In this document: positions 5,615 to 25,676 of the stretch, in pieces
How positions within the stretch are numbered: the first letter of the stretch is position 1
Layout: each line of letters begins with the position of its first letter
The notes under the pieces: generated by a model
The model's database searches: none
Told to the model about the DNA's origin: nothing
Seen by the model: only the letters and a program-made list of their open reading frames with translations
NCBI GenBank assembly: GCA_032622095.1
Contig: CP136062.1
Coordinates: 166,474,090 to 166,538,089 of the forward strand
Origin: Siphonodentalium dalli
Lineage: Eukaryota; Mollusca; Scaphopoda; Gadilida; Siphonodentaliidae
Reading direction: 5' to 3'
Length of the DNA: 64,000 nucleotides
Made by a program: the position numbers and the translations under genes

Positions 5615-5780
5615 CTGACAACATTTGCTAATTTATTCAGAAACCAGTACATGTGAGATCTCAGATCACAGAATTGAACTTCTGATAGATAGTGCATGTG
5701 ATGAACCGGTAGATCTGAAGCATCTCTGAAAAATCTGGAAAAATAGGAAAAAAACCCACTAATAAGTATACATGTACATG

Positions 5781-5891: not shown

Positions 5892-6781
5892 GATGTAACA
5901 TACAGTAAATACCTGATAAATGAAATCACCTACAACTTTCGTAAGTTTGAACAGTACTTTTCTCTGTACATGAACATGAAATGACAGTACATGTGGTGAA
6001 GTCGCTGATTTAAGAAACACTAAGAACGATTAGTGAGACTAATACACAAAATATAATTCCTGATACCGGTATATATTCATCCATTTTTCAGAAATCTATA
6101 ATTCTTTCAATCAAATGGCAATATTCTCAAACAAAAAGCAATGTTTTATTTCACTTTGTATACATTCATTTATTTATTCATTCCCTCATTTCAGCTCTAA
6201 TGCGATTGTCCTATTTAAATATGCATAATCCGAATTAACGCTCGAAAATTACTATTTCTTTGGCTTTGGGGAAACAAATATTTGATTTGAGTCGAGGAAC
6301 CCACCCATCAAAGCTCAGAGTGATCAGATATAATTTTTTGCAATCCATTATTTTTCAACACTGGTACTTTTTAGTGGCCTGGCAAAAAGTAAACGAGAAG
6401 AAGTTCTCGGATCAAATTGCGTATGAAGATGGATAACTCTAAAGTCAAGTGGCTTTTGTGTGTCTGATATTTGACAATCCGTTGTTTTAATTACCACACC
6501 AAATCACCCATAATTATTCATGTACATGTATGCAACTACGTAACTTCTGTTAAAGAGATTTGCATGGAAATCCCCTTTCAAAATTGTTCACTTGACCTTC
6601 CCCTTAATATATTCTGACTGAAGCATATTTAAAAAAAATGTTGTTCGAATCTAATGATATGGGGACTATCGAATCAGATTGAGTACCTTTAAATACAATT
6701 GAAACTTCCTTGTCGTCGCACACTATTTTGAGTTTTTTTAATAAACCTGGCAAGGTTGGTACATGTACATACATGTACATG

Positions 6782-6859
6782 TACCCTGCTAGGCAAAACA
6801 AGTGTTCACTTAACCACGTTGCGGTTAGCATTGCCACCGCAGCCGAAATGCAACTACAT
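6782..6859. mobile_element. Truncated TACCCTGC-type MITE (left end only)
   Basis: The first ~78 bases of the MITE complete at 10327-10739 are present, then cut off at the tandem-duplication junction. Confidence 0.75.
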
Positions 6860-8095
6860 TGATCAAAAATTGATCAAAAATAGGAAATATACAAATATTG
6901 TTCTAAATATAATTTCCCATTCATAAATTGTTGAAAAATAAAACTACAAGAACAACTGCAACCTACTGTTCCGTCAGACATGCAATTTCCAACTATTGAA
7001 AAATTTGACCTGAGTTGGGGACACCCCCCCCCCCCCATCGCCATGTCCCTGCATGGCCTATCAAATGTCCTTCCGTTATTACAGGAGTGTCAACTTTTCC
7101 ACCAGTAACATACATGGGCGGTTGTATTTGTGATATGATAGAACACCATCTCCCAAGCCCCCCCATCATGTCGACATTTGTATAAGATGTGTGTTGTCTA
7201 ACACTGTGCCTTAAAAATCAATGAAATCGCTAAATTTGTATTTAAAACACATATACTTAACCACAAAACTGGAAATTTTAATAATGTTTGTGATATTATT
7301 TGTCTTTGGATAAGTTCCATATATGCTTAAACTTAACAAACACCATACACCACCAGTAGTTTTACAGGACAAAACAATGTTATACAAATGTATGTAGCGA
7401 GCATATGGACAAACTTCTCAACACACTCTGTATCCTGGAACATGATAAACATACCAAGAAATTACCAGGTACACTTTCTTTTAAAAATGACACTACCGGG
7501 CATGTCATTCTAATAATAAAATAACCCACTGTGATATTATGGTTGTTGGTGAATTTGGATTTAGTTAAAAATATTATGTTCACATAGTTGGCACCAATAT
7601 TTTATTAATCAGAAGGCAATTACATCATGGTGGAGTCTTCGGGTCTTCTTTGGTTACCAGTACACTTTCTGTTAGACATACACCTTCACGTGTAACGTAT
7701 GGCGCTTTCCAAACATACATGCATATAAGATTGTTCTATGCCATGATAATATTTGTTGCACAGGAGAAAGAAATCTGCATCAGCTTCATGGAGGGAATTC
7801 CTTAGTGACTACAGATTCAAGAATCACTATACAGTGTACAAATGGGTTCTCCCCCAAAGACATCCATTGCACTCTTGAAAAACTCATATAGTTTGGAAAG
7901 AATCTTGAGTTTCCCAAAATTTCATCTAGTATTATAAGATGCAAATTCTTGAAAATCGTTGGTCCTTGTTGTAGATATTGTCTTTCCATCATGCGAGCTC
8001 GCAGGGTCACACACAACATATTGGCTTTACAGTTCCATTTAATCACTGCTTGTGAATGTGAATTTTACACCTGTTCAAGGAAGTTGTCTGACAAC

Positions 8096-9159
8096 TAGGC
8101 TTGCCACGATTATTCGATTAATCGACTAACCTTCGGCAGGTGTGGTAGTCGACGGTTATTTACTTTCGTTGACTAATCGCCCAAACTGGGGGGGGGTGTG
8201 CTGTGGGGTATGGTTGTGTATTTAAGCAGTAATATGCGCAAATACCATGCCTAGAAGTAAAAGTTAACAGTGTATGTAGCACAATTTACCACCCGACAGC
8301 CTGTAGCCTACTGTCGCCACTTCTGATGCGGCTTCCTTTGATAACGCAGCCAACGTTTGGCGGTCATCTTCAAAGGGTTCGGTGTGCCTTTGGTGTCGTG
8401 TTACAGACTTGCCACTGTTTATATATTATGTTTAAATGTAAACCTATCATCCTATGGATCTGTAATTAGCGATCAACATATCCAAAAATGGACGACGTGC
8501 ATGGGACTCATCTATATATTTGTTTTTTTCAAATTTCATACTGTAAAACGTTCACCATTATTGATAATAATTGACAAAGTCACAAAATTCGCGGGACATG
8601 GAATGTTCAGTGTTACTAGACAGTTAATAACAAGTTGGTGTCATCACTTATTAGTGCTACATACATTACATTCTCCAACTTGGTAACGTATATACCCCCT
8701 ACCACATTACCGCACTGCACGATGCGTTGCATGCACTTTGAATAACAGAACTAAAATAATCAGGTGTCAGGTGACGCAATCGATACACAATGGGATTTTC
8801 TGCAAACATAACTATAGTCCGTTTTCAATAAGTATGCGACAATTCCGCATGCTTTCATGGTTTGGCGCCGTGACCGCGATACATGTTCACGGGTAACATT
8901 GATTGACTGGACAGATTTTTAAAACAATTCTCGTCCGCGGCAATAGCGATGAGGAGGGTGTTTACCCGCTGCGTAAATTTGAGTTTAGGTGGCCGATGAC
9001 GGGTGGGTGCCTCAGAATGACAAGCCTGCTGATTGACAGTTTATAACTGTGTTCCGACTGGGTGCAATATAGGCCACATATATAAACGATTAATCGACTA
9101 ACCGTCGACTATAGCGGTCGATTAGTCGATTATGAAAATTCATAGTCGTGGCAACCCTA
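8096..9159. mobile_element. Non-autonomous hAT-type element, copy 2
   Basis: Duplicate of the element at 4550-5614, carried along by the 3.54-kb tandem duplication. The 8-bp flanks CTGACAAC (8088-8095 and 9160-9167) are also copied, so this was not an independent insertion. Confidence 0.85.
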
Positions 9160-9325
9160 CTGACAACATTTGCTAATTTATTCAGAAACCAGTACATGTG
9201 AGATCTCAGATCACAGAATTGAACTTCTGATAGATAGTGCATGTGATGAACCGGTAGATCTGAAGCATCTCTGAAAAATCTGGAAAAATAGGAAAAAAAC
9301 CCACTAATAAGTATACATGTACATG

Positions 9326-9436
9326 TACAGTAATGCCCTAATCAATCGACTCGACGAGAGCTTTCCGACTAAATCCTGAAAATTTACCCATAATTATGAT
9401 GTGGTTATGGAGTCAATTAATTATGGCATTACTGTA
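9326..9436. mobile_element. Small TA-flanked MITE, copy 2
   Basis: Copy of the CAGTAATGCC-ended MITE, present only because the surrounding segment was duplicated; it shows a few substitutions relative to copy 1. Confidence 0.6.
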
Positions 9437-10326
9437 GATGTAACATACAGTAAATACCTGATAAATGAAATCACCTACAACTTTCGTAAGTTTGAACAGT
9501 ACTTTTCTCTGTACATGAACATGAAATGACAGTACATGTGGTGAAGTCGCTGATTTAAGAAACACTAAGAACGATTAGTGAGACTAATACACAAAATATA
9601 ATTCCTGATACCGGTATATATTCATCCATTTTTCAGAAATCTATAATTCTTTCAATCAAATGGCAATATTCTCAAACAAAAAGCAATGTTTTATTTCACT
9701 TTGTATACATTCATTTATTTATTCATTCCCTCATTTCAGCTCTAATGCGATTGTCCTATTTAAATATGCATAATCCGAATTAACGCTCGAAAATTACTAT
9801 TTCTTTGGCTTTGGGGAAACAAATATTTGATTTGAGTCGAGGAACCCACCCATCAAAGCTCAGAGTGATCAGATATAATTTTTTGCAATCCATTATTTTT
9901 CAACACTGGTACTTTTTAGTGGCCTGGCAAAAAGTAAACGAGAAGAAGTTCTCGGATCAAATTGCGTATGAAGATGGATAACTCTAAAGTCAAGTGGCTT
10001 TTGTGTGTCTGATATTTGACAATCCGTTGTTTTAATTACCACACCAAATCACCCATAATTATTCATGTACATGTATGCAACTACGTAACTTCTGTTAAAG
10101 AGATTTGCATGGAAATCCCCTTTCAAAATTGTTCACTTGACCTTCCCCTTAATATATTCTGACTGAAGCATATTTAAAAAAAATGTTGTTCGAATCTAAT
10201 GATATGGGGACTATCGAATCAGATTGAGTACCTTTAAATACAATTGAAACTTCCTTGTCGTCGCACACTATTTTGAGTTTTTTTAATAAACCTGGCAAGG
10301 TTGGTACATGTACATACATGTACATG

Positions 10327-10739
10327 TACCCTGCTAGGCAAAACAAGTGTTCACTTAACCACGTTGCGGTTAGCATTGCCACCGCAGCCGAAATGCAACT
10401 ACATGTACACCGCGGCTCCAACGGCTAACTACAGTTGGGCCGCGGTGTATTTGCTATTCGGCCATGGTGTAAATGTAGTTGCCGCGGTGTACATGTACAT
10501 TCGTTTAACTGAAAAAAGACAATACAAACCAGAAATCTAACCATCGTGCACATGCCATCCGGCCCTCTTGTACATGTAGTTGCTTTTCGGCCACGGTGTA
10601 CATGTGTACTTGTCGTTCGGCCGCGGTGTACTTGCGATCGGCCGCGGTACTCAACTGCAGAATTTACAAACCCTGACACCGCAGCCAAACGGCAAATACA
10701 CTGCGGTGCCAATGGACATTTGTTTTGTCCAGCAGGGTA
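10327..10739. mobile_element. TACCCTGC-ended MITE with iterated GGCCGCGGTGTA units
   Basis: Ends TACCCTGCTAGGCAAAAC and its inverse GTTTTGTCCAGCAGGGTA define a ~413-bp element. The interior is repeated ~20-bp modules of the type CGGCCGCGGTGTACTTG, in one orientation on one half and inverted on the other, around an AT-rich centre (AACTGAAAAAAGAC). Related copies lie at 6782 (partial), 44530-45515 (interrupted), 54361-54494 (partial) and 57468-57871. Overlapping open frames on both strands here are by-products of the GC-rich repeats. Confidence 0.8.
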
Positions 10740-11907: not shown

Positions 11908-12285
11908 TGTTGTAAAGTGGTGAATCGGGCAGGGTTAATCCCCAAGAAGGCAGCCAATGACGTCAGGACCACGTGACCTCAGAACGAAACCTCACTCCTA
12001 ACAGGAAACCAGATAGATTTATCATCGATAATAATCTACGTTGATCTACGTGTTTATCGTGGATTGTGACCTACGAAAGGATTACTATAATTGACGCCGT
12101 CGACAAATTCTTAAAATCATGATTTTGAGAAGGATTCGTCGAAGGATTTCACGGACTCACAGCGAAATCTCTGTGATTCCAAATTCAAAGGATTGACTTT
12201 GGAAAAGTGAAGATTCTTCTTTATTCTTCTTGCGGAGAGGGATGACACTCTCCGATAATTGTTTGCACGCTACTACGATTATATT
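11908..12285 (+). repeat. 5' LTR
   Basis: Begins TGTTGTAAAGTGG and matches 25184-25561 over 378 bases with about 6 substitutions. The two copies diverge immediately outside these limits. The right end reads ATTATATT rather than the usual CA. No obvious AATAAA signal is seen inside it. Confidence 0.93.
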
Positions 12286-12286
12286 G

Positions 12287-12304
12287 TGGTAGCTTGCGTA
12301 TTGT
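12287..12304 (+). other. Candidate primer binding site
   Basis: TGG one base after the LTR, followed by TAGCTTGCGTATTGT, is where a tRNA 3' end should pair to prime minus-strand synthesis. I could not assign a tRNA. Confidence 0.4.
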
Positions 12305-12392
12305 GCTAATTGTGAAATTGGGAAATAATTTTTCCCAAAATCCTTGTGAAAATTCGCGCCAGCTTCGCCAGGAGGAATTCTGGGAAAGGATT

Positions 12393-12516
12393 CCAAATTT
12401 GGTAAAGAAGGCGGAGCAAACACCCATATTCGGGAAAAGTGTTCCATATTTGGGAAAAGTGACAGGAATTCAGCTCCCATATTAGGAGAAGAAGTCACGT
12501 GGTATTCCATATTTGG
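12393..12516 (+). promoter_or_regulatory. Cluster of CArG (SRF-type) boxes
   Basis: CCAAATTTGG (12393), CCATATTCGG (12424, one mismatch), CCATATTTGG (12444), CCATATTAGG (12477) and CCATATTTGG (12507) are spaced 31, 20, 33 and 30 bases, close to 3, 2, 3 and 3 helical turns. CCATATTAGG is the core known from serum response elements. Some boxes continue into GGGAAAAG. Confidence 0.6.
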
Positions 12517-14231
12517 AAAACGAAAGGACGCGGTGTTCTTGGTCATTTCGGATCGCCATTTTTGGAACAAAAATTCGAGAGTGGTGAGTGAGAGTGGAGC
12601 TGCCAAAATAACATTAGAGGTAATATCTTGTTGTCAATTGTGCCACCAGGTGCCTCTTCTATGCAAGCTTCTCAAGTGAAACTTGAAATTGGAACGTTTG
12701 GACACTTTCTCTTCGAACTGAAGGGGGAAGCAAGTCAATAGATAGCGAGAGAAAACAAGGATAGAGTTGTTTCCCTTACACATTGTGGCACATGGATTGT
12801 TTTGTTATTGTTTACATTCAATTATCCACGTGAGCGAAATGATGTCAGTTTACAAAACCAGAATACCATTCCTTTTGTACGGTTTTCTCACACAGTGGAT
12901 TGAATTGGAAACGAGCTAGACACTAACCGTTACACAATACATTCCCTTGGTAGGGACTTCATCTGTATGATTATAAATTCAACTCTAAAATATGTTGGAA
13001 GCCAAATTTGGAAATGTATTGGAAACAAATAACTGACTCAAATACTTTCAAATATTCTCCTTTTAGGGGGTCAACATCATAAAGTATTCCCTTTTGGGAA
13101 AATATAGGGAATTTTGCCAAAACTGGACTTGAATTGTTCAAATTCAATTTGGAATTTTTCGTGGAATATTTTCTATCGATATCAGTAGCTTGTACTAACC
13201 CTAGAAGGGACGTAGGTACAACAAGTTGATCCAGTAGGAAAATTGAACCTCGTCTTAACCAAGTTATCACTAGTCTCAAAACAGTGAAAACATTTACAGG
13301 AATTGGGTACTCGGGACAAATTAGTGTTTGAACATCAGTCAACGAGGAGGGTACTAGGAATATTTTCGGCTGCAGTAGTTTGTCAGAAATCCCTTTAGTA
13401 GGGAACTTAGCCAAATATTGCGGTTTTCAGATGTGTTTTCAGACCCCCAACACTCTTGCACTTGATGACCTTTAGTGACCATTCTCAAAATACATGGTTT
13501 TTGATAGGAAGTCATTACAACTTTAGATAGTACCCACCCCACAGTTCATGCATCATACTTCACACAATAACTTTTGAATTTACAGGGAAATTGCCATTTT
13601 TTCAACTTGTCGCTTGTTTCCACTTGTCACTTTTTGGAATCAATTGTGATACATTGCATCTGCACTGAGCGGTAACAATCAAGGATTACTAATACACCAC
13701 GACTCATATCCAAGTGGCTAATGGTATATCATACATTCGTCTCGTCTTCATCTCCATTTTGAGACGCTACATGCCTGCGTCAAAATTTTTTTTTACGTGA
13801 CCTTTGTCTGACCTTAAAATTCTCTTAAAGAGACACAGCCTGTTTGACAATACTTGGTCAAGTCATATAAAACCCATATTTGGGGACATCACTTGCAGTA
13901 AATCATATTTTTCCAAGAGGAACATCATATACATAACTTGTTACAAAATATTTCCCTTAAAGGGACACTCACAATTTACTGAATTTGTTACAAAATAACA
14001 CCCTTGTGAGGGTTTACGCTATATTGCTTGGAGACAAACTGGTAATAGTGTGATATATTCAACTTAAAAAATATAGTACCATCTATTATCGGCATCTCAT
14101 ATTTGGGAAATTGTCGGTTGTATTAAGATACACAGTGTTCATATTATTAAATAAAAGTTACACTTAAACTTCTTGTGTGCCGACATCTAAGATTTCTACC
14201 CCTATTCAGGTAACAAAGGCCAAGGCTAGAA

Positions 14232-14605
14232 ATGGACTCTTCATCACAACGCACGGTTATAGAGACAACCACACGCGAACAAAAAGTTGAGATAAACACA
14301 TGCAGCTTTACCGAGTTAACCAGATTGCCGGATGTTGGTGTCAGGATCGCAGAACAGATAATCAGCCTACGTCATCAGAGAGGAGAATTGAGCCCAACTG
14401 ATCTGAGCAACATTTGAAAGTTGACGAAGCTCTTCTGGACAGTATAGTGTTTGCCCCACATGAACAGAGCGTCGGGCAGAAGGGCCAAGACTTGTACGAG
14501 GTACCCAGACACATTGAAATGGAAGACTCGGCAAAGCAGGAGGAGAAACAATTGGAGAATAGGCATCCTCCAAGAAAGCACCCCATATTCCGGGGGAGAC
14601 ATTAA
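14232..14605 (+). pseudogene. Helix-hairpin-helix (ComEA-type) N-terminal region of the Gag precursor, frameshifted
   Basis: The first coding segment starts at an ATG 1.9 kb after the LTR. Residues about 20-60 read as a ComEA-like helix-hairpin-helix: an INTCSFTELTRLPDVG core, then AEQIISLRHQRGEL and a PTDLSNI tail. This non-sequence-specific DNA-binding fold is found in DNA uptake and repair proteins. The frame closes with TGA at 14412-14414 inside the last helix; similar sequence continues in another frame (KVDEALLDSIVF), so a single-base indel is likely. The second frame runs to 14605. A HhH at the start of a Ty3-type Gag is unusual; a nucleic-acid chaperone role is inferred. Confidence 0.65.
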
Positions 14606-16460
14606 ACCATTGGCGGATGGAGTGATGCACCCCAATTGGGGAGGATACCATTCCTATTCCAGCGGCACTGACACATTGGGTCAATGCAGGGAGGAACCGA
14701 AGGCTGGAAATTATCAAAATGTGGACCAACAGACAAGGGATCTAAAGAGGAATACCAATTGGTCGGCACATAGACGAATGCGAAGGTCGTACTCAGAAGA
14801 GAGGAGCGAAGCACTCGATGTAGCTCGTGCCCAGGTAGCACACGCACGCAGGAAACATTCCTGGCCGGGATCAAAGGAGAAGTACCACGAAGAATCATAA
14901 ACAGATGATTCTTCAGACTCGGGTGAGGAACCGCAAATATCTAGGTCTTCCTTTAAAGATCACCTCAAAGATTTACTCCCCCAAACAACCATCAATTACC
15001 TCCTCAACAACAAAATACCTGGATTCGCACGTTCTCAAACAGCCATAAAACAGGAGGTCATAACCCCGCAACACTATGGGGAATATAACACAAGACAGCC
15101 ACAAGCAAACCAAGCAGTTGGAGGACAGCAATGGCAGAACCAAGCTGCCTGGGGACAACAAACTAACCTAGCTGTCCGGGGGCAACAACAAGCAAACCAA
15201 GCGGTTGGGGGACAACGACCGAACCAAGCTGTCTGGGACCAACAAGCAAACCAACAAGCAAACCAAGCGATTGAGGGACGACAACAAGCCATGGCGCCCC
15301 CGCATAATCAACCTGAAATACCCCAACAGAGGGCAGAAGTTCCAGTTCAAAATCCAAGAGTAGCCAATCCAAGAGAAGTTCAAAACCGTTGTATAAACCA
15401 ACCCAGAGTCCAGGATGACCTAAAAAAAAGAGGTCTTAATTTTGACGGATCGCCAAAGTCGAGCTGGCAAACCTTTCGTACCAAGTTCGAGAAATATTCC
15501 AATATGAAAGGATGGGATGACCAACAAGTGGTAAATCAGTTGTGCTGGTGTTTGGAAGGCCTGGCTGGTGACCATTACACCAGAATAGTACAACAAACCC
15601 CTCATATAGAGGGACCTGAGCTGATAAGAAGGATGGAATAGAGGTTTGGAATGCGCGAAATACCGCAAACGGTACAAGTGCGTTTTCAGCAGGCTTCACA
15701 AGACCCTGAATAATCCATAGAGAGATGGAGCGATCGAATATTACAGCTGGCAATGGATGCATTTGGTCATCTCCCGGAGGATTACTTATACGACCAAGCA
15801 ATCATGCGATTCTGCCTAGGAGCTGTGGACCAGTAAGCTGGGCTATATACTGCAAACGATCGCCCAGGAACCATGGAAAGCGCAATAGAGAAGTTGAGAT
15901 TTTTTCAGTACACGTCTTCTGCTGTGTATGGTGATGGGAAAAGAGTTTCCCAAAGGAACGGGAATCCCAGAAGAGACGCCAGCCCTGTTAGGGTGCAAAT
16001 GTCGCAACCATACCGAAATCGGAACCAGAGCCCCTCATATGATCGCGACTATCAGAGGGGAAAGGGATGGTGCAAAAATCAAGACCCCCTAGCCCACGAC
16101 GTGGACAAAACAGGGATGAGAGCTCGAAAATGACAAGGAACGAAGAAAATGGCGAGGGCTCCGAAAAACGGTGGCAACAGATGGATGAGAAGTTTAAAGA
16201 CTCTGAAAAACGGATTGATGAAAAGTTCAATAAACTAAAAGAGCTATTGGAACCAATGCAAAAACAGATGGAAGAAATCGGAGCTCGCTATAAGTCACTA
16301 GAACAAACAATAGCTCCATATCGACCGAGATCACCATCACCTGAACCAAACAACACATGTTTCATGTCGGTCGGATCAACATTTTTCTCGAGACGGTCCT
16401 TCAAAACGACCATATTATCGATCAGCGACCCCACCAAGGGAAAGCCAAAATGTGTCGTTT
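14600..16460 (+). pseudogene. gag: Gag polyprotein with Q/N-rich repeats and coiled coil, multiply interrupted
   Basis: One frame runs from about 14600 to 16060 with in-frame stops at 14898 (TAA), 15639 (TAG), 15711 (TAA) and 15834 (TAA). An Arg/Ser-rich start leads to a Gln/Asn-rich tract (15100-15290) of ANQAVGGQQ-like units, then a Ty3-type Gag capsid core: FDGSPKSSWQTFRTKFEKY, WCLEGLAGDHY, a RFG turn and WSDRILQLAMDAFG. Near 16060 the reading shifts to another frame encoding a charged coiled coil (EKRWQQMDEKFKDSEKRIDE) up to a TGA at 16460. A possible decayed CCHC knuckle lies around 16357-16400 across frames. Gag forms the particle and packages RNA; this copy cannot make a full-length product without readthrough and frameshifting. 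Confidence 0.82.
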
Positions 16461-16567
16461 GACTTAAACGAGAAAGGGTAGAGTCCCAAGGCCTAGACCT
16501 GACCCGTGTTATAAGTAAAGGCCTACCAGAGATAGAGATACCGAATCAAAAACCATCTCCACAGGTT

Positions 16568-18013
16568 ATGGCAGTAGTGGAACCCCCAAAGGAAGACTGG
16601 GCTAGTAATTCACCAAAACCCCGTATTGGGGATTGGGACTTAAACCAAACAACCCCATTTGGGGTCGGGGGTAGGACAAAAAAATCTGAATCTGATTCTC
16701 TCTCATCATCTGATATCGACGCTATATATCAAACACTTCGAGAGGAATACGGAAAATATTCTGACAGCGAGGAATCGGAATGGGATCCAGGGGGGTCTTG
16801 GAGGGAAAAAGAGCACCCCGATCTGATAGAAACCCCTAGTATGGGGAAAGACAGAGGGGTGGAGGCCCTATATAAGAATTTACCCCGAACATATGATGAA
16901 ATATCAACCAAGGCTGGGGAAGATGAGGAAACAAACTCAACCCTGGAGGAAAAGGACGAATCTCGATTGACAACCAATTTGGATCGAGACAATGAATCAC
17001 AAACAATGTCAATGGTCAACGATATCCAACCAACAAGTACAGCGTACCCTCGCGAAGGGAAAATAAAGCAAGTAGACGAGCTGGAGACGAAGAAAAAGGA
17101 AATAGCACCAGCTGAACAAAACAATGAAATCCGACGACAAATTCATGGGGAGACCACCTTGACATGCATCAGGAAATCTGTGAATCAATTACACTCAAAT
17201 TCTATGCTGAGAGTGCCCATAAAGGTGGGGAATGTGGAAACAACTGCGGTGCTAGATACAGCTTCAGAAGTAACAGTTATTTCTGACAGACTTCTCGAAG
17301 AAGCCAACCCACACCTCCCGTTGATAAACGAAGTACGTATGGACACAGCGGGCAGGAAACTGTCAATGCAAGCTTTCATCATGGGACCAATATCCCTAGA
17401 GCTAGGGAACCTTGCATGGTCTCAAAAGGTTTACGTAGCCCCGATAACAGAAACTATGTTACTAGGCTTAGACTTTCTACAACGATTTGGGGCTCAAATT
17501 GATTTGAAATTAGGAGAAATGACAGTTCCCGGAGGGAAAATACAGATTGAAGCCAGTCAGGAGTGGCAACCAGCAGGGGAGGTGTGGATTCCGAGACAAG
17601 GGACGATACCACCTAACACTGGGAAGAACGTGAAGTGCCAGATAACCAAGCTTAAGGGAGATTATGTGATCGAGCCAATGGGATCATGTGGCTTAATTGC
17701 AGCGCGAACAGTACATTGGCAGGGACAGAACCCAATGATTTGCTTATGGAATACAACTGATCGTGCAATCAAATTGAAACCGGGTTCTCTCATTGGTTTG
17801 GCATTCGAGGATGACGTTTTGGAAACAACCAAACCAAACAATGGTGAGAACACAGCGACAATATCAAACAAATTAACACCAGATCCAGAAGATATAACAC
17901 GGAATGACCAGGCCGGGATACATGACATAGTAAAAGTTATGACGCTATCCCTTGACGAGGGAAAGAATGAAGACGACAGCAGGATAGTCCGACGAACTGA
18001 CGACAAAGACTGA
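16568..18013 (+). CDS. Retroviral-type aspartic protease region with acidic N-terminal linker
   Basis: This 481-residue frame is open. Residues 1-200 are acidic, low-complexity linker (SESDSLSSSDI). Residues about 213-310 are a retropepsin-like domain: VPIKVGNVETTAVLDTASEV with active-site Asp230 in D-T-A (usually DTG/DSG), then MLLGLDFLQRFGAQIDL at about 297-313 for the conserved hydrophobic-G-x-D region. It should process Gag-Pol as a homodimer. The same frame is open upstream to the TGA at 16460, so the ATG at 16568 may not be the natural start. The pol frame opens at 17988 and overlaps this one by 26 bases in a +1 relation, which could be a programmed shift or damage. Mini-palindromes at 16619, 16652, 16833, 17047, 17393, 17526 and 17948 are embedded in it. 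Confidence 0.85.
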   Translation: MAVVEPPKEDWASNSPKPRIGDWDLNQTTPFGVGGRTKKSESDSLSSSDIDAIYQTLREEYGKYSDSEESEWDPGGSWREKEHPDLIETPSMGKDRGVEALYKNLPRTYDEISTKAGEDEETNSTLEEKDESRLTTNLDRDNESQTMSMVNDIQPTSTAYPREGKIKQVDELETKKKEIAPAEQNNEIRRQIHGETTLTCIRKSVNQLHSNSMLRVPIKVGNVETTAVLDTASEVTVISDRLLEEANPHLPLINEVRMDTAGRKLSMQAFIMGPISLELGNLAWSQKVYVAPITETMLLGLDFLQRFGAQIDLKLGEMTVPGGKIQIEASQEWQPAGEVWIPRQGTIPPNTGKNVKCQITKLKGDYVIEPMGSCGLIAARTVHWQGQNPMICLWNTTDRAIKLKPGSLIGLAFEDDVLETTKPNNGENTATISNKLTPDPEDITRNDQAGIHDIVKVMTLSLDEGKNEDDSRIVRRTDDKD

Positions 18014-18038
18014 GAACCTGCCGAATTCCCTGAATGGG

Positions 18039-20708
18039 ATGGAAGCTTCGCATATAGCAACCCCCTTAGTAGAGGGACGGTCAGTAAATGTTCTCAGACC
18101 AGACTTGTTTGACCTATGGGAGCGCTCGTCTAAACATTTAGACTATGAAGAACCGGGCATGCTAGGTCAACTATTAGAAGAGTATGAAGATGTATTTGCC
18201 AAACATGACTTCGATTTGGGAACTTTCACAGCTATAGAACATCACATCGACACGGGTTCTGCAAAACCAGTTAGGTTACCCCTTCGTCGTACACCAGCGA
18301 GTTTTGTAGAAGAAGAGAAAACACGTTTGAAAATATTATTAGATGCTAACGTCATACAGCCTAGTGTCAGTGAGTGGGCAGCAGCCCCGGTACTAATACG
18401 AAAAAAGGGCGTAGCTGGAGTTCGCTGGTGCATTGATTACAGATCTATAAACGCTGTGACTCGTAAAGACAGTTTTCCAATACCTCTAGTAGATGATTGC
18501 ATAGAAGCACTTAGCAGAAATAAATGGCTATCACGCCTGGATGCCAACAGTGCGTACTACCAGGTCAATTTAGCCGAGGAAGACAAGCACAAATCTGCAT
18601 TCCTAACAAAATACGGTGCTTTTGAATTCCGCAAACTAAGTTTCGGACTCTGTAATGGACCGACTACATATAGTAGGGCGATAAATCTGGTACTACATGG
18701 TCTAAATTGGGACACGGCACTGGCATTTTTGGACGACGTGACAGTTCTGGGCAGTACGGGAGTTGTACATCTCCGAAATTTGCGCAGAGTCTTCGATAGA
18801 TTTCGCCAATATGGTCTGAAACCAAAGCCGAAGAAATGCTTACTATTTCAAAAAGAAATAGAGTTCTTAGGACGACGCATATCGGTGGGGGGAATCGCCA
18901 TGAGTCAAGAATCAATTCAAGCTGTCCTTGAATGGCCAACTTCCAAAACGACGAAACATGTAGAGAAGTTTTTAGGATTGGTCAATTACCATAGATCCTT
19001 TATACAAAACTACGCCCACAAAGCTACACCATTGTATCGGAGAACTGGGAAGCGTCCATTTAATTGGGGATCAGAAGAACAGATAGCATTCGAAGAGTTG
19101 AAGGAAAGTTTAACAAGCCCACCTGTCTTGGCATTTCCAAATAACACTGACCAATTTGTGCTTGACACCGGTGGGTCAGGGGATGCAGTCGGCGCAGTAT
19201 TAAGTCAAATCCAGAATGGAGAAGAACGAGTTATAGCTTATGGGAGCTACGTGCTATCACCGGAACAGAGAAGATATTGCACGACCCGCATCGAACTACT
19301 GGCGGTGGTGAGATTCACACAACATTTTCGCCACTGCCTGCTTGGTCGAGAATTCTTGGTAAGGACAGATCACAGTAGTCTGACATGGCTCCTCAATTTC
19401 AAAGAGCCACAAGCAGAATTGGCCAGGTGGATTGAGGAGCTCCGCCAGTACAACATGAAAATTGAATACCGCAAAGGTGTCAAACATGTCAATGCTGACG
19501 CAATGTCGAGAATCCCATCAGAACAGAGCTGCACAAATTATGCACTTGGAGTACCCATTGAAAACCTCCCCTGTGGGGGATGTAAATATTGCCAACGAGT
19601 GCATAATGGATTGGCAAAGTTTGTGGAAGACGTCGATGATATTGCACCATTAGCAGCACCAAAACGCTTACCAAGAATAACGTGCCTGTCGGTAGAGACA
19701 GAATACTCTCTCAATCTCAACTGGCTAGAAAAGGACCAGGAAGATTTCCAAGTAAACTGTAACATCACTAGTATGGATTTCTGGATAGAAGATGGTCAGC
19801 TACAAATGGAGACTGACAGTGCCCATGTTGATGGGAAACGTCCAAGCGACCAACCACAAGACACAAGTTCTGTAGCCAGAGGACCAGATGATTGGGAATC
19901 AGCGGATGGACTAACTCCTCAAGTATGTGTGAATAACACAGCACTATCTGGAGGCCTGCAAATCACAGGGTTATCTCAGAAGGACTGTATAGCTGCCCAG
20001 CGAGAAGACCCAGCCATTAAAATAGTGTTCACCAGCCTACTAAACAGAGGGTACACCCCGGAGGAAAACACATTGGCATCAAGTAACCAAGAAGCTAAAT
20101 GTTACTGGCTTAAACGAGAGCGATTCAAATTAAAGAATGGATTGATCAACTGGAAAAGAAAAAATGAGGAATACGTGTTATGGGTCCCTTATAAGTGGAG
20201 AGAAGACCTGTTGGAATTGGCCCATGATGGCCGTGCCAGTGGGCATCAGGGGCAGGATAGGACACTTGCCCGGATAAAAAACCAGTACCACTGGTACCAT
20301 ATGCCGGATGAAGTGGAAAAGTATGTCCAAGGATGTGCGGCATGTAACGCTAATAAGAAGAAAGCTCGTAAAGGACGAATTCCACTCACCATTTACCATG
20401 CAGGAGTGCCGATGGAACGTGTTCACATATACTTCCTAGGACCCCTGTCAAAAACCGAGAGGGGGAACGAACACATTTTGGTGATCGTGGATCAATTTAG
20501 AAAGTGGGTCGAGTGTATTCCATTACCAAATCAGACCGCAGAAGAGACGGCGTCGGCTGCAGTGAGAAAATTCTTCTGCCGTTTTGGTTACCCTCTCCAA
20601 CTGTTTTCAGATCAGGGACGAAATTTTGAGAGTGACATATTTACAAAAATGTGCGAGATATTCTCCATACATAAGGCCCGCACCACGCCATATCACCCGT
20701 CTAGTTGA
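18039..20708 (+). CDS. pol: Pol: reverse transcriptase, RNase H and N-terminal/core integrase (3' end broken)
   Basis: An 889-residue open frame. RT spans about 60-290, with LSRLDANSAYYQ (Asp168) and the catalytic box FLDD (230-233), an FxDD variant of YxDD. RNase H spans about 365-490 with Asp376, Glu419, Asp444 and Asp487. A CGGCKYC cysteine patch follows at 512-518. The integrase HHCC finger uses His729, His736, Cys766 and Cys769. In the DDE core the first Asp position reads Tyr798 (VHIYFLGPL) while the second (SDQG, Asp858) is kept; the Glu lies beyond the break. The frame ends at TAG 20706 right after YHPSS, where a small deletion at a CTAGT repeat seems to have joined two frames. RT looks intact; integrase is dead on two counts. 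Order RT-RH-INT places it in Ty3/gypsy (Metaviridae). Confidence 0.95.
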   Translation: MEASHIATPLVEGRSVNVLRPDLFDLWERSSKHLDYEEPGMLGQLLEEYEDVFAKHDFDLGTFTAIEHHIDTGSAKPVRLPLRRTPASFVEEEKTRLKILLDANVIQPSVSEWAAAPVLIRKKGVAGVRWCIDYRSINAVTRKDSFPIPLVDDCIEALSRNKWLSRLDANSAYYQVNLAEEDKHKSAFLTKYGAFEFRKLSFGLCNGPTTYSRAINLVLHGLNWDTALAFLDDVTVLGSTGVVHLRNLRRVFDRFRQYGLKPKPKKCLLFQKEIEFLGRRISVGGIAMSQESIQAVLEWPTSKTTKHVEKFLGLVNYHRSFIQNYAHKATPLYRRTGKRPFNWGSEEQIAFEELKESLTSPPVLAFPNNTDQFVLDTGGSGDAVGAVLSQIQNGEERVIAYGSYVLSPEQRRYCTTRIELLAVVRFTQHFRHCLLGREFLVRTDHSSLTWLLNFKEPQAELARWIEELRQYNMKIEYRKGVKHVNADAMSRIPSEQSCTNYALGVPIENLPCGGCKYCQRVHNGLAKFVEDVDDIAPLAAPKRLPRITCLSVETEYSLNLNWLEKDQEDFQVNCNITSMDFWIEDGQLQMETDSAHVDGKRPSDQPQDTSSVARGPDDWESADGLTPQVCVNNTALSGGLQITGLSQKDCIAAQREDPAIKIVFTSLLNRGYTPEENTLASSNQEAKCYWLKRERFKLKNGLINWKRKNEEYVLWVPYKWREDLLELAHDGRASGHQGQDRTLARIKNQYHWYHMPDEVEKYVQGCAACNANKKKARKGRIPLTIYHAGVPMERVHIYFLGPLSKTERGNEHILVIVDQFRKWVECIPLPNQTAEETASAAVRKFFCRFGYPLQLFSDQGRNFESDIFTKMCEIFSIHKARTTPYHPSS

Positions 20709-21498
20709 ACGCTACAACCGTACCTTGATGGGTGCGGTGCGTTGCTATGTAGGATATCACCCACGTGGGTGGGACCGTCATGTTGCTTTAATTGCAGGGG
20801 CATCGCGCTCATCAGTAAACAGACATACAGGATACACACCGAACATGTTGATGTTGGGACGCGAAGTGAACCATCCAATTGATTTGGTTTTCAAGCCACC
20901 ACCAGCTAAAACAGAAACCAATCTACCAGAGTATGTACTGCGGTTGCAAGGCAACATAAGAGATGCACATGAGGCAGCCAGGAAAAAGTTGAACACTTCA
21001 GAAAGGATCATGAAGCGAGACTATGACATCAAACAGCGCATATACGAATACGAACCTGGTGACCCCATATACTTACTGGATCCAAGCATAAGCAAGGGAG
21101 AATGCAAGAAGCTTAGCCCTATGTGGAAAGGACCAGGATTAGTATTAAACAAATTAGCGCCTTTCCTGTACAGGATACAGCTATACCATACAATTTCAAC
21201 TGTCAACCATGACCGTCTAATGGCGTGCAAGGATAGGAAGCTACCAGACTGGTTGACAAAAAGAATAAAAAGGAACAGAGAAGAAACACCAAAGAAAAAT
21301 GAAGACCCCGGCAGGAAACACAGACAAGCCATATTTTGTGTTTGTCGGAAGCCGGACGATGGACAGCTGATGGTACAATGCGACAAATGCCGTGAATGGT
21401 ATCACGCCGCATGTGTAGGCACAACTCGTAGTGAAACAGATGACGCAACGGAGTACGAATGTCCCCAGTGTAAGGGGGATGGAGCAGAACAATTGTAA
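20701..21498 (+). pseudogene. Integrase C-terminal part fused to a PHD finger (separated from pol by a frameshift deletion)
   Basis: The frame continues integrase directly after the break, beginning with LVERYNRTL, which contains the catalytic Glu of DDE. It then has a GPY/F-like module (LSPMWKGPGLVLNKLAPFLY) typical of Ty3/gypsy integrases. Its last 55 residues form a PHD finger with C4HC3 ligands C252, C254, C266, C269, H274, C277, C293 and C296 (numbering from the frame's ATG at 20584), plus MVQCDKCREWYHAACVG. Met263 and Trp272 sit where H3K4me3-reading PHD fingers place cage residues. Chromodomains at this position steer chromoviruses to chromatin; a PHD here plausibly targets integration to methylated H3K4, an inference. 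The first ~40 residues of the frame overlap pol and are out of frame. Confidence 0.88.
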
Positions 21499-21540
21499 TT
21501 GTTTCCCTATTTGCAGGTGATCTGATCATGGGATAGTAAC

Positions 21541-22266
21541 ATGTCAGAAGATGGGTCACCAAGAAGGGCCTGGCTGCAGGACAGGAGGCAGGGAGAGACG
21601 GATAATACCCTGAATCGTCCGGGGGTTCCCCTTTATAGCCAGGTGCTTATGGATTCCCTGAGAACTGCACCGGTGAAGGAAACACTGGCAGCAGAAGAAG
21701 GGCCTATACCCCTGAGGGGTGGCCAGACAGTAGAAGGAAGGGATAATCCCCTCAACCGGGGGATCCCCCTATTCAGTGAAGTGGTTGCTAAGTCAGCTCA
21801 AGATGGGAAGACACAGGGAAAATTAGGAAAAACCCCTATGAGGGGATGTATATCCCATACTAGCCAATTAAACAGCGGAAACACCCTTATGAGGGGAGGT
21901 ATATCCCAGACCGGCAAATTAAACAGAGGAAAAACCCCTATGAGGGGAGGTATATCCAAGGTCGATCAATCAAACCGAGGAAAAACCCCTAGCAGGGGAA
22001 CTTCCATGAGGGGAAATGTATCAATGCCCAGACAAATGGTTTCATTGAATAGAGGAAAAGCGAGGGGTGGTACATCACAAAACAGGGGGAGAAACCCTAT
22101 GAGAGGAGAGAAATCTCAACATACTGGGAAAACTACATACATTGGTGCGACAACATCAATAGGGTCCATCAAAAATAATCAACGGACCAATGTACATGTA
22201 CCCGAGGAGAGTGTGACAACCCCTGGGGGGAGCACTGAACAGAAAGACCGATGCCCGATCCCCTAA
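21541..22266 (+). CDS. Arg/Gly-rich repeat region, probable N-terminus of the Tpt1-like protein
   Basis: A 241-residue basic, disordered frame starting 43 bases after the integrase stop. It contains repeats of the type KTPMRGGIS / LNRGKTPMRGG (about 95-190), five of them each encoded by a CCCCT-n-AGGGG mini-palindrome (21833, 21884, 21935, 21986 and a decayed one at 22093). RG/RGG-rich segments commonly bind RNA. The frame stops at 22264-22266, but the next frame is open across that point and continues the same N-R-G style into the Tpt1 domain (SPNRGN), so the two were probably one protein broken by a frameshift near 22230-22260. No homologue is recognised. Confidence 0.7.
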   Translation: MSEDGSPRRAWLQDRRQGETDNTLNRPGVPLYSQVLMDSLRTAPVKETLAAEEGPIPLRGGQTVEGRDNPLNRGIPLFSEVVAKSAQDGKTQGKLGKTPMRGCISHTSQLNSGNTLMRGGISQTGKLNRGKTPMRGGISKVDQSNRGKTPSRGTSMRGNVSMPRQMVSLNRGKARGGTSQNRGRNPMRGEKSQHTGKTTYIGATTSIGSIKNNQRTNVHVPEESVTTPGGSTEQKDRCPIP

Positions 22267-22303
22267 CCGGGGCAATACAGTTGAAGAAGAAACGGGTACA
22301 GCC

Positions 22304-23758
22304 ATGCTAGCAAAAATCGCGGAGACATCAACAATATTGAGAGAAATGCTGGGGAAAAAATTTGCCAAAGTCCTCCACCACAGAAAAGATCTGGTGGCAG
22401 AAGGAAAAGTCTCAAGGGAAGATGGTAGCATGTTCGTGCCCACTCTTTTGGAATTACCTGAAATGGCAGAAGTAATGGATGTAGTGGATATAGTCCACAA
22501 TGACAGCAAAAAGAGATGGTCCTTAATAGAGACCCCACGGGGATGGCTCATTAGAGCCAAACAGGGGCATACCACAGAAATAGGTTACCCCCACCTAAAG
22601 CCGATAACTCAAGAACCAACAGGAAAATATCCCCTAGCCATACATAGAACTTATGAGAAATGCTGGCCCTCTATTAGGGAAAATGGCTTAAGCAAAATGC
22701 AGCGAAACCATATTCATTTTGCTAAAGGATGACCTGGAGACCAAACAATAATCAGTGGCGTGCGTTCATATGCTCAAGTCATGATGTATTTGAACGTAGA
22801 GACTACCCTTAAAGAAGGGGTACCCTTCCTGGTGTCGGAAAATGACGTTATACTTTGTCCAGGGAATAAAGACGGAATTATCCCGATGCATTGCTTTATA
22901 AAAGTTGTTAACAACCACAATGAGCAAATATACCCACAGAAGAAAGACATTCTATCGTTAGAGTTAGAGATATTATCAAACAGTGAGGAAGATATGGAGA
23001 TTGATGAGATCCTCAAGGAGGACAAAGAACATGTACTAGTAGATATCACCCCTGGTCAGGGGGGCCCATCAAGTGAGGAATTCCTTATCGTTGATGAAGT
23101 ACAGGCATCAGAGATTCCCTCATTGGAGGGCAACACAAAACAAATTGTAGAAGTACCCGATGATGAGGCTTTAGACTTAGTTGTCAATATCACCCATGGG
23201 AAGATCCACACAGTAAAAGCAGTAGAGATCATTAATGGGTACTCGGACGAAAGGAAGCTACTACCAGCCCGCCATCTAATGGGCGCATGCTGGCCTTGCA
23301 TGCAAAATGGCCAGATCAGCAAGTTTGCCATTGAGGCTACTATTAAGAGCCAATATAATATGGCTTATGAACAAGGGGACATGGGATGGATATCCAAATG
23401 TAGGAAGGATGGCGCCTTCTTTGTCAATGAAGAGTGGGCAAGGAAAATGATGCCATATACACTCAATGATCCCCAGATACATTTAAAACGAACGGCTTGG
23501 TTTAAAAAATATTACTCAGACTCAGGTCTTGGTGGACAAGACACCCCTGTGGGGTTAAAATCTAGAAATGCTAGTCGGCCACCAACCAAGGAATACACAC
23601 ATAAGGCAGATCGAGAGCCAAGACGGACGGTATTATTAGTGTCACCACATAATCATAATACTCAGGGGCAGAGTTTGCCGATGACCCCTAAGGGGAACTC
23701 GAGACCAAAAATGGGGGCCCAACCATCAGCAACGGTCACAAGACCCCCGAGAAGATGA
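22304..23758 (+). pseudogene. Tpt1/KptA-type RNA 2'-phosphotransferase domain plus unknown C-terminal domain (one in-frame stop)
   Basis: Residues 15-140 match the Tpt1/KptA family: AKVLHH (family LRH, here with His for Arg), NDSKKRWSL, the NAD-binding IRAKQGHT (Arg84, His89), IHRTYEKCW (family HGT) and MQRNHIHF (Arg134, His138). After a single in-frame TGA (22730-22732) the same frame resumes with the family's C-terminal half: VRSYAQVMMYLNV, then GVPFLVSENDVILCPG. Tpt1 enzymes move an RNA 2'-phosphate to NAD+ after tRNA ligation, and some ADP-ribosylate phosphorylated RNA or DNA ends. An acidic linker follows, then an unrecognised ~120-residue domain (LMGACWPCMQNGQ...MGWISKCRKDGAFFV) and a basic tail. 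Mini-palindromes at 22533, 22667, 22806, 23049, 23117, 23543 and 23685 lie within the gene. I am confident of the family, not of activity. Confidence 0.85.
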
Positions 23759-23789
23759 TCATCGGGTGGAACAGCAATGAATCATAGAA

Positions 23790-24690
23790 GTGACCATGAA
23801 ATCAAATGTCTTTGAGAAGACGCGAACCAATAAGGATATACAACCGGACGCATCAGTTCCACTGTGGGCCATATATAGCCACTTTCATCTAGACCGGCTG
23901 AGGCAAGCTATGCAACTGCCACCTTACACGGAATTGAATGACATCTTGAGGCACGCAGACACCCCTTCTTTGGGGATAAGGTTGGCAGGAAAAGTGGTGA
24001 TATACTGCGATCCGGAGACCTACCCGGACTCAGATGAGAAGTGGGACAATCTGACAAGAGTAGCAATTGGTTTGCATCCAACTCATGTGGCGAAAATGGC
24101 CCCGGAGCAGGAGGACCGAGCGCTAAAACAGATGAAATATCATCTGCAACGCCCAGAAGTTACCGTTTTTGGCGAAGTGGGGTTGGACCGGACAATTCGT
24201 CCCAAGTTCTGGAGGAGACAAACATCGCTCTTCCAGAGACTTCTTGAGCTAGTAACTACGGACAAACCCCTCGTGCTCCACTTTAGAGGGTCAAGGGAAT
24301 CTGGGGACGCCGAAGATGTATTCAACCGGGGATTGGTCATGGCAAAAGAAAATTTGTCACCCCTTCAACCAATACACCTACATTGTTTCACCGGCAGTAA
24401 GGCAATGGTGGAGAAATGGATGGAAGCGTTTCCCAGATGCTATTTTAGGGTTCACTGCGAAAGTTGGGGATTTCACCAAGACCCAAAAAGATGCCATACA
24501 GGCCGTACCGGACGACAGACTATTGACTGAGACAGATGCCCCATACCTAGGAAAAAACCTGGGAGTAAAATATACAGCACCCACGATGGTGGGCGATGTC
24601 GCTGTATTAATGGCGGAAGTGAGAGGATCTACAGTCGACCAGATCCTGGAGGTCAACGTCAAGAACGCCCGTGACCTATATCGACTGTGA
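23790..24690 (+). pseudogene. TatD-family metal-dependent deoxyribonuclease, frameshifted
   Basis: TatD hallmarks occur in order: SHFHLDR (His31, His33), AIGLHPTHV (92-100), FGEVGLDR (Glu129), LVLHFRG (His164) and HLHCFTGS (His198). The last, LLTETDAPYLG with the metal-binding Asp, and a VNVKNARDLY tail are in another frame (24316-24690). The shift lies near 24437-24452, soon after HCFTGS. TatD proteins are TIM-barrel hydrolases acting as 3'-5' DNA exonucleases or endonucleases in repair and DNA degradation. All metal ligands are retained across the two frames, so the parent gene was probably active. It starts 31 bases after the Tpt1-like gene's stop and is the last gene before the 3' LTR. 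A mini-palindrome at 23962 is embedded in it. Why a retroelement should carry a DNase is unknown; cDNA trimming or target-site processing is speculation. Confidence 0.88.
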
Positions 24691-25175
24691 GAACTCTCTA
24701 ACTATACCCAGAGACGACTGATGTGGAAGGCCTCGGTCCCATCATTATGTCCCTCTCATGAAGAGAAGGAGTAGCCCTTGCGGACATAAGGCAGGATCGA
24801 CACACCATCGCCAGGCTGGGTGGAAAACAAGGGTTGATGGGAGTTCCCCTCCAAATATAGAGAGAGACAGCGTCATGGGGACCGAGAAAATTACATGAGT
24901 CTGACCCCTGATTGGGGAATGAATAACGGATAGTCAAACACCCGGTACGGAACAAGACAACAGAATAAAGATCCCTAAGGGGGGGGGGGGGGGGAATAAC
25001 AAATAGTCAAAAGAGAGAACCAAAGAAACCACACAATCATCGTGGGGAAGGGAGGAGGGATGGAATATCCCACACCACTGACACTAATGCCTTGAGGTAT
25101 AAAAGAACCCCTGATGGGGGGACAAGGAGACAGAGGAATCAGACCATACAAGGCACCCTCCAACAATGGAAAATT
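24691..25175 (+). other. Retrotransposon 3' untranslated region
   Basis: No coding frame is seen. It carries mini-palindromes at 24905 (CCCCTGATTGGGG), 24973 (CCCTAAGGG) and 25108 (CCCCTGATGGGG), and a run of about 16 G at 24979. Confidence 0.6.
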
Positions 25176-25183
25176 GGGAAGAG
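25176..25183 (+). other. Polypurine tract
   Basis: GGGAAGAG lies directly against the 3' LTR, the normal site of plus-strand priming. Confidence 0.75.
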
Positions 25184-25561
25184 TGTTGTAAAATGGCGAA
25201 TCGGGCAGGGTTAATCCCCAAGAAGGCAGCCAATGACGTCAGGACCACGTGACCTCAGAACGAAACCTCACTCCTAACAGGAAACCAGATAGATTTATCA
25301 TCTGTAATAATCTACGTTGATCTACGTGTTTATCGTGGATTGTGACCTACGAAAGGATTACTATAATTGACGCCGTCGACAAATTCTTAAAATCGTGATT
25401 TTGAGAAGGATTCGTCGAAGGATTTCAAGGACTCACAGCGAAATCTCTGTGATTCCAAATTCAAAGGATTGACTTTGGAAAAGTGAAGATTCTTCTTTAT
25501 TCTTCTTGCGGAGAGGGATGACACTCTCCGATAATTGTTTGCACGCTACTACGATTATATT
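25184..25561 (+). repeat. 3' LTR
   Basis: Direct repeat of 11908-12285, same length. Differences include AAATGGCG for AAGTGGTG, ATCTGTAA for ATCGATAA, ATCGTGA for ATCATGA and TCAAGG for TCACGG. The flank after it (ACTATAGTGT) does not clearly repeat the bases before the 5' LTR (ATTGTGT). Confidence 0.93.
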
Positions 25562-25676
25562 ACTATAGTGTTTATTTGATTTGTACATCATATCTGAATA
25601 ATTTAAATTGGTGAATTAATGGGGGAATGGATTTCTTTTGTGAGTGAGAAATTGATTTATCTAGCTGCTGTAGTTC

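What the first reader, a model, noticed from the sequence alone, without database searches (positions are those of the whole stretch)
22304..23758. A Tpt1/KptA RNA 2'-phosphotransferase domain encoded by a Ty3/gypsy-type retrotransposon
Several family motifs occur in order (NDSKKRW, IRAKQGHT, QRNHIHF, GVPFLVSENDVILCPG), on the pol strand, between integrase and the 3' LTR. Tpt1 removes splice-junction 2'-phosphates using NAD+ and in some species ADP-ribosylates phosphorylated nucleic acid ends. A retroelement using it could repair or condition a tRNA primer, or modify RNA/cDNA ends; that role is inference. The first basic motif reads LHH where LRH is usual. I know of no description of this in an LTR element.
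Basis: partly seen in the sequence, partly recalled or inferred. Interest (0 to 1): 0.92.

Follow-up and report, generated by a model that had tools for sequence, protein, structure and literature searches.

The report
Retrotransposon carrying an RNA-repair-type enzyme
A family of jumping genes in this large genome carries, behind its normal replication genes, its own version of an NAD-using RNA-end enzyme (Tpt1/KptA) together with a nuclease, and its better-preserved copies keep the enzyme's active site, so it is probably in use.

Summary
Window 22346-22864 matches PF01885 (Tpt1/KptA) in two pieces (E 5e-25, 1e-6) split by an in-frame TGA, between a PHD-tailed Ty3-type integrase and the 3' LTR. 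The window copy is broken (stop, frameshifts, deletion, first catalytic Arg replaced). It is not an isolated pseudogene: the 2.23-Gb host genome has at least 83 KptA matches, 23 of 83 in open frames of 800 aa or more. Four divergent families (KptA 33-43% identical) carry it in a 950-1492-aa third ORF ending in a TatD nuclease. The Arg-His-Arg-Arg tetrad is kept in 22 of the 24 distinct loci with a near-full, stop-free domain; several, not all, pairs show purifying selection. The host has a separate TRPT1-like exon. A splice-acceptor-like site precedes ORF3. TatD is commoner in this PHD-integrase lineage; KptA is an extra in a subset. The tRNA-primer role is unsupported; acting on phosphorylated RNA or cDNA ends is the best inference. 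My literature searches found no KptA or TatD in an LTR retrotransposon. Verdict: real, a new variant of the 'enzymatic ORF3' kind.

The parts
11908..12285 (+). 5' LTR (378 bp, starts TGTTG)
   Evidence: 98.4% identical to 25184-25561
12265..12297 (+). hairpin across the LTR end and the putative primer site (TGG at 12287)
   Evidence: part of a fold of -22.2 kcal/mol for 12256-12330; the same letters in family C copy L016, so no covariation evidence
15291..15641 (+). ORF in the gag position (no family test made)
   Evidence: ORF list; position only
16568..18013 (+). aspartic protease region
   Evidence: PF13650 8.8e-8, PF00077 2.5e-4
18039..20708 (+). RT, RNase H, integrase (frame changes near 20.7 kb)
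   Evidence: PF00078 7.8e-25, PF17917 1.4e-28, PF17921 1.1e-16, PF00665 3.4e-11
20584..21498 (+). integrase C-terminal part with PHD finger at its end (Pfam match at about 21337-21471)
   Evidence: PF00628 7.2e-11; nearest solved PHDs BPTF, PHF2, CXXC1
21499..21540 (+). pol-ORF3 gap with splice-acceptor-like site
   Evidence: best-scoring of 906 AG sites in window 14001-25600; same place in one copy each of families C and D
21541..22266 (+). ORF3 N-terminal part, repeat-rich, no Pfam match
   Evidence: 79% identical to residues 1-216 of a family C ORF3
22346..22864 (+). Tpt1/KptA domain, split by TGA at 22730-22732; first tetrad Arg replaced
22733..23755 (+). ORF3 middle part; lacks about 280 residues present in a family C relative, including a C2H2-like region
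   Evidence: tblastn goes from residue 629 to 911 of the family C ORF3
23790..24690 (+). TatD-type nuclease domain in two overlapping frames
   Evidence: PF01026 1.3e-17 and 1.1e-12
25173..25183 (+). polypurine tract before 3' LTR
   Evidence: sequence ATTGGGAAGAG directly before the LTR
25184..25561 (+). 3' LTR

Best explanation
This is one decayed copy of a Ty3/gypsy LTR retrotransposon lineage with a PHD-tailed integrase and an enzymatic third ORF in the env position. In four families that ORF holds a eukaryote-type Tpt1/KptA domain, a C2H2-like region and a C-terminal TatD nuclease. Shown: domains, order, multi-copy spread, conserved catalytic tetrad, purifying selection in several comparisons, a separate TRPT1-like host exon. 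Inferred: ORF3 is made from a spliced RNA; KptA uses NAD+ on phosphate-bearing RNA (or cDNA) ends, taking off 2'-phosphates left after host or element RNases cut the element's RNA, while TatD trims 3' ends. The substrate is not established.
For: PF01885 in the window and at 83 places in G000; 40 of 83 cover at least 160 of 177 positions, 32 of these 40 without a stop, and 23 of 83 lie in frames of 800 aa or more (counted). KptA and TatD in one open ORF3 in one copy each of A, B, C and D. IN, PHD, KptA and TatD all found in 14 of 20 fetched loci (in L012 the RT/IN hits are on the other strand). Tetrad RHRR in 22 of 24 distinct loci with a near-full, stop-free domain (exceptions L008, L020). KptA selection: B L014/L045 w~0.12, p 7e-5; A L010 versus L020 p 3.5e-11. 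KptA, TatD, RT-RH and IN each support ((A,B),(C,D)). Acceptor-like site rank 1 of 810 and 1 of 789 AG sites in one copy each of C and D. Tpt1 chemistry: PMC6333775, passages. KptA in RNA-virus polyproteins, proposed there to process phosphate RNA ends: PMC9503650, passages.
Against: No activity, expression or substrate data. Some pairs show no significant selection on KptA (A L028/L015 p 0.23; B L013/L047 0.15; C L017/L019 0.15; D L022/L021 0.33). 76 of 106 PHD-integrase loci listed have no KptA match within 8 kb, so it is not required for the lineage; one of them, C3:84531874, has a family A pol (100% identical over the query). The acceptor site is weak in B (48 of 704) and moderate in A (15 of 660).
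Confidence: 0.62

Rival explanations
1. KptA works as an ADP-ribosyltransferase: it caps 5'-monophosphate ends of element RNA/cDNA to shield them, or of host small RNAs (such as piRNA intermediates) to disable silencing.
For: Human TRPT1 ADP-ribosylates 5'-monophosphate purine RNA, not 3'-phosphate RNA (PMC9458441, passages); the closest solved chains to the element KptAs are human and mouse TRPT1.
Against: No direct evidence; human TRPT1 modifies 5'-pyrimidines only weakly, and piRNAs mostly start with U (recalled).
Confidence: 0.22
2. KptA repairs or conditions the tRNA primer by removing a 2'-phosphate.
For: Tpt1's classical substrate is a tRNA splice junction (PMC6333775, passages).
Against: Metazoan tRNA ligation leaves no junction 2'-phosphate (same paper; that the host is a metazoan is likely, not tested). 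One strict tRNA pattern for the putative primer site had 0 matches in the genome (a relaxed one did not complete). 76 of 106 listed PHD-integrase loci show no KptA match.
Confidence: 0.07
3. KptA is a passenger: captured host sequence carried without function.
For: The window copy is broken; four of 20 fetched loci are KptA without pol or TatD (L020, L024, L026, L027).
Against: Kept in four families at synonymous saturation with the tetrad intact; purifying selection in several pairs; same ORF with TatD.
Confidence: 0.05
4. KptA is kept for binding (RNA or NAD) or as an assembly part, not catalysis.
For: Domain kept while the IRA motif drifts to IKA in B and LKA in D.
Against: The four tetrad residues are kept in 22 of 24 distinct loci and the HGT motif in all rows but L020.
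Confidence: 0.1

Closest known systems
Bdelloid rotifer LTR retrotransposons with enzymatic ORF3 (GDSL esterase, DEDDy exonuclease; PMC5408684, abstract and passages)
   Same: gag-pol plus an extra enzyme ORF in the env position; one type is an RNA/ssDNA 3'-end nuclease; two enzyme domains can share one ORF3
   Different: Different enzymes: TatD and Tpt1/KptA here; PHD-tailed integrase here; the word phosphotransferase does not occur in that paper's main text
Orchid Ty3/gypsy elements with an AlkB RNA demethylase ORF (PMC9289625, passages)
   Same: Ty3/gypsy lineage that acquired an RNA-directed enzyme with intact active site
   Different: Demethylase, plants; here NAD-dependent phosphotransferase plus nuclease in four families
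RNA-virus and DNA-virus KptA domains (Beihai picorna-like virus, Botrylloides leachii nidovirus, sawfly nucleopolyhedroviruses, Bodo saltans virus; PMC9503650, passages)
   Same: In the two RNA viruses KptA is embedded in a polyprotein; proposed there for RNA-end processing
   Different: Viruses, not retroelements; that paper's main text has 0 mentions of retrotransposon, LTR or retroelement and 2 of retrovir-
Cellular TRPT1/Tpt1 (human 7yw3, mouse 7yw2, yeast 7yw4; species names recalled)
   Same: Domain, tetrad, HGT motif
   Different: Free-standing cellular protein; the host here has its own TRPT1-like exon with splice-site bounds
Burro giant gypsy-like elements of planarians (PMC6431247, passages)
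   Same: Gypsy-like elements with extra enzymatic and regulatory domains
   Different: Other domains; TatD, PHD and phosphotransferase have 0 mentions in the main text

Membership tests
Tpt1/KptA RNA 2'-phosphotransferase | Profile match over the curated cut-off | tested here: met
   window 88.9 and 29.4 bits in two pieces, cut-off 26; four relatives 111-163 bits
Tpt1/KptA RNA 2'-phosphotransferase | Arg-His-Arg-Arg tetrad | tested here: met
   22 of 24 distinct relative loci with a near-full, stop-free domain; NOT met in the window copy, which reads LHH at the first site
Tpt1/KptA RNA 2'-phosphotransferase | HGT motif of the NAD site | tested here: met
   all rows except L020 (HST); the window copy reads HRT
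Tpt1/KptA RNA 2'-phosphotransferase | NAD-dependent activity on 2'-phosphate RNA | not testable with these tools
   needs purified protein
Ty3/gypsy LTR retrotransposon | LTR pair, polypurine tract, PR-RT-RH-IN order | tested here: met
   closest solved RT is Ty3 (family C relative)
Ty3/gypsy LTR retrotransposon | tRNA primer site | tested here: inconclusive
   strict tRNA pattern 0 matches
Ty3/gypsy LTR retrotransposon | Target-site duplication | tested here: not met
   by eye no matching short repeat at the window copy's ends; other copies not checked, so this may be local decay or recombination
TatD nuclease | Profile match with metal-site motifs | tested here: met
   PF01026 124-135 bits in one copy each of A-D; DSHFH, GEIGLD, HLHC and ETDxP motifs by eye (motif list recalled)
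Enzymatic ORF3 of LTR elements | Separate ORF after pol, spliced expression | tested here: inconclusive
   separate ORF met; acceptor-like site only predicted; no RNA data
Retroviral env ORF | Signal peptide, transmembrane and fusion parts | not tested
   no env family among Pfam matches of four ORF3s; no transmembrane prediction was run

The most novel reading that the evidence does not exclude
A retrotransposon-encoded NAD-dependent nucleic-acid ADP-ribosyltransferase: KptA marks 5'-phosphate ends (of its own RNA/cDNA, or of host small RNAs that silence it), paired in one polypeptide with a 3'-end nuclease, forming a two-ended nucleic-acid processing device against host defence.
Probability: 0.18. 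Interest if true: 0.92.

Novelty: new variant of a known kind. Interest (0 to 1): 0.74.

Why it matters
Loss of Tpt1 in mice is reported to have no phenotype (PMC6333775, passages), so its job outside fungi is unclear. A mobile element that has kept a Tpt1 domain through deep divergence points to a real phosphorylated nucleic-acid substrate in its host's cells and gives a system in which to find it. It also extends the enzymes recruited by LTR retrotransposons to NAD-dependent chemistry, and shows a modular ORF3 (TatD common, KptA optional) in which sister families with and without KptA are natural controls.

Tried and rejected
Inserted host pseudogene: rejected (83 matches, 22 of them nearly full-length in frames of 800 aa or more, separate host exon).

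I first took the R of IRA as the third tetrad Arg and thought B and D had lost it (the R3 column and a note carry that error); the numbering in PMC6333775 and the yeast chain place it in KxRF/W, which A, B, C and D keep (L008 excepted).

Relatives elsewhere: ORF3 KptA region against 5.8 billion proteins, 2443 candidates, none at E 1e-3; that database appears poor in animals (my inference), so this is weak. Viral contigs with the KptA alignment: 89 pattern stretches, none confirmed. KptA alignment A1: 24 proteins at E 1e-5 or better, best 1e-54, 22 of them used for the tree (P0021 and P0024, partial, left out).

Tree of element KptAs with cellular ones (33 rows; the program warned that its bootstrap had not settled): apart from the bacterial, archaeal and P0023 rows at 100/99; A, B and two relics one clade (96/88); C and D unresolved; one clade of all six not rejected (p-AU 0.3) but not shown. 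Some KptA-less families are a little nearer to A and to C by integrase than A and C are to each other. So one gain with losses versus two gains is open.

Literature for KptA/Tpt1/TRPT1/TatD/PHD in LTR elements: nine searches, of which I saw the listed rows only, and term look-ups, gave no such report; only open-licence PMC papers are held. Structure prediction was not run: most relatives came by a route its stated rule does not list.

Full report
Observation. The KptA/Tpt1 match is real: PF01885 at window 22346-22864 in two pieces, E 5.3e-25 and 9.8e-7, separated by a TGA at 22730-22732. It sits on the pol strand of a Ty3-type element with 378-bp LTRs at 11908-12285 and 25184-25561, 98.4% identical, after RT, RNase H and integrase.

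State of this copy. The window copy is broken in several genes: the integrase frame changes near 20.7 kb, KptA has a stop and reads LHH at the first catalytic site, about 280 residues of the ORF3 middle are missing relative to a family C copy, and TatD changes frame. By eye no target-site duplication was seen. Relatives without such damage exist.

The family in the host genome. G000 (2.23 Gb, 9 contigs, organism not named) gave 83 matches to PF01885 from 150 scored of 154 candidates; one of the 83 is the host TRPT1-like exon and some are two pieces of one place. By count, 40 of 83 cover at least 160 of 177 positions, 32 of these 40 without a stop, and 23 of 83 lie in an open frame of 800 aa or more. 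Twenty 9.9-kb stretches were read (chosen for diversity, not at random): 14 of 20 hold integrase, PHD, KptA and TatD (in L012 the RT/IN hits lie on the other strand), L023 and L028 lack TatD in the stretch, and L020, L024, L026 and L027 hold KptA only. Four families are clear: A, B, C (the window's) and D. In one copy of each, one frame of 950-1492 aa holds KptA and ends in TatD; by eye the four proteins also share a C2H2-like motif between them. Three family A loci have identical KptA DNA, so spread was recent.

Conservation. Between families KptA is 33-43% identical with synonymous differences saturated in the five pairs computed. The essential tetrad of Tpt1 (Arg18, His19, Arg68, Arg121 of the Clostridium enzyme; PMC6333775, passages) is kept in A, B, C and D. 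One search tallied 35 rows that have a near-full, stop-free domain; other loci, broken or partial, were left out beforehand. Taking each genome place once gives 22 of 24 with RHRR; the exceptions are L008 (RHGR) and L020 (RYRR). Selection by pair: family B L014/L045 12.5 synonymous to 4.5 nonsynonymous (p 7e-5) and L014/L012 p 0.009; A L010/L020 p 3.5e-11; A L010/L024 p 2e-6; D L022/L023 p 0.045; not significant for A L028/L015 (0.23), C L017/L019 (0.15), D L022/L021 (0.33) and B L013/L047 (0.15). Pairs with fewer than three changes were not printed. For integrase, B and C are significant and A and D not (0.068 each); RT of A L028/L015 is near neutral (0.35). TatD: C L017/L019 p 2.5e-7, D L022/L021 0.015, C L016/L018 0.018, B not significant (0.48, 0.12). 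These tests treat changes as independent and pairs share loci, so they are approximate.

Origin. By sequence the domains are closest among solved chains to two TRPT1 entries (7yw3 and 7yw2, human and mouse by recall; E 4e-50 and 2e-49), and the tree sets them apart from the bacterial and archaeal rows with the eukaryote-type proteins (100/99; bootstrap not settled). The host has its own TRPT1-like exon at C6:143059560 with AG and GT bounds, 52% identical to human TRPT1 over the exon and 31-40% to the elements. Only that exon was read, and it is short: a bacterial chain reaches 45% there. KptA, TatD, RT-RNase H and integrase each support ((A,B),(C,D)) and reject the two other quartets (KptA p-AU 0.014 and 0.011), so ORF3 and pol moved together within those pairs.

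A wider lineage. TatD searched genome-wide gave 150 matches, 150 of 529 candidates being scored; the best-scoring ones lie in frames of about 300 aa, probably host genes. Of the 150, 31 have a KptA match within 4.5 kb upstream. Of 106 PHD-integrase loci listed (95 scored of 5010 and 4966 candidates; one second piece left out), 30 have KptA within 8 kb downstream, 24 of these with TatD as well; 76 have no KptA match, of which 32 have TatD and 44 neither (lower bounds, since candidates were capped). So TatD is found with and without KptA in this lineage, and KptA looks like an addition in some families. Relative to A, family B is 59-62% identical, KptA-less families mostly 50-55%, C and D 49%; relative to C, D is 63-64%, KptA-less families mostly 50-53%, A and B 49-51%. 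KptA carriers are therefore not simply each other's nearest kin: one old gain with losses, or two gains, remains open.

Expression. In one copy each of the four families ORF3 starts shortly after the pol stop, with an acceptor-like site between. With a recalled weight table that site ranks 1 of 810 (C), 1 of 789 (D), 1 of 906 (window), 15 of 660 (A) and 48 of 704 (B) AG sites. Spliced ORF3 expression is called typical for LTR retrotransposons in PMC5408684 (passage). Here it is a prediction.

Primer. After the 5' LTR comes TGGTAGCTTGCGT, which pairs with the LTR end in a strong hairpin, identical in L016. A strict pattern for a tRNA with the matching 3' end had 0 matches. Primer unknown.

Mechanism. 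The chemistry of the family is removal of a 2'-phosphate with NAD+ (PMC6333775); human TRPT1 also ADP-ribosylates 5'-phosphate RNA (PMC9458441, passages). Given pairing with a nuclease in one polypeptide and the precedents of enzymatic ORF3s with 3'-end nucleases (PMC5408684) and of KptA in RNA-virus polyproteins (PMC9503650), processing of phosphorylated RNA or cDNA ends is the most likely role; which end and whose RNA is not known.

Novelty. Nine paper searches (listed rows only) and nine term look-ups (calls in Tried and rejected) found no KptA, Tpt1 or TatD in an LTR retrotransposon; the library lacks most subscription papers and preprints, and repeat databases could not be checked. It is a new variant of the known kind 'LTR retrotransposon with an enzymatic ORF3'.

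Noticed in passing
window 3322-6859 and 6868-10404: Two head-to-tail copies of about 3.5 kb, 99.8% identical, just upstream of the element.
   Followed up: no
window 21307-21489; G000 widely: PHD finger fused to a Ty3-type integrase end, most like the PHDs of BPTF, PHF2 and CXXC1 (H3K4me3 readers by recall); could steer integration to active promoters.
   Followed up: partly
G000, e.g. C3:30408358-30409173 in a 969-aa frame downstream of PHD-integrase C3:30411337: TatD nuclease in an ORF after pol in PHD-integrase elements that have no KptA match; TatD in an LTR element was not found in print in my searches.
   Followed up: partly
window 12265-12297: Hairpin joining the LTR end to the putative primer site; no primer tRNA was found with one strict pattern, self-priming is possible.
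   Followed up: partly
G000 C6:168573725-168849731: Five places with KptA matches, all on the minus strand within about 280 kb, one of them (L026) without pol or TatD nearby: a possible relic array.
   Followed up: no
G000 C3:84531874: A family A pol (100% identical over the query, 1884-aa frame) with no KptA match listed within 8 kb downstream.
   Followed up: no
window 48059-49110 and 59322-61733: Tandem and diverged repeat arrays.
   Followed up: no
window 12286-15290: Leader of about 3 kb between the 5' LTR and the first ORF in the gag position.
   Followed up: no
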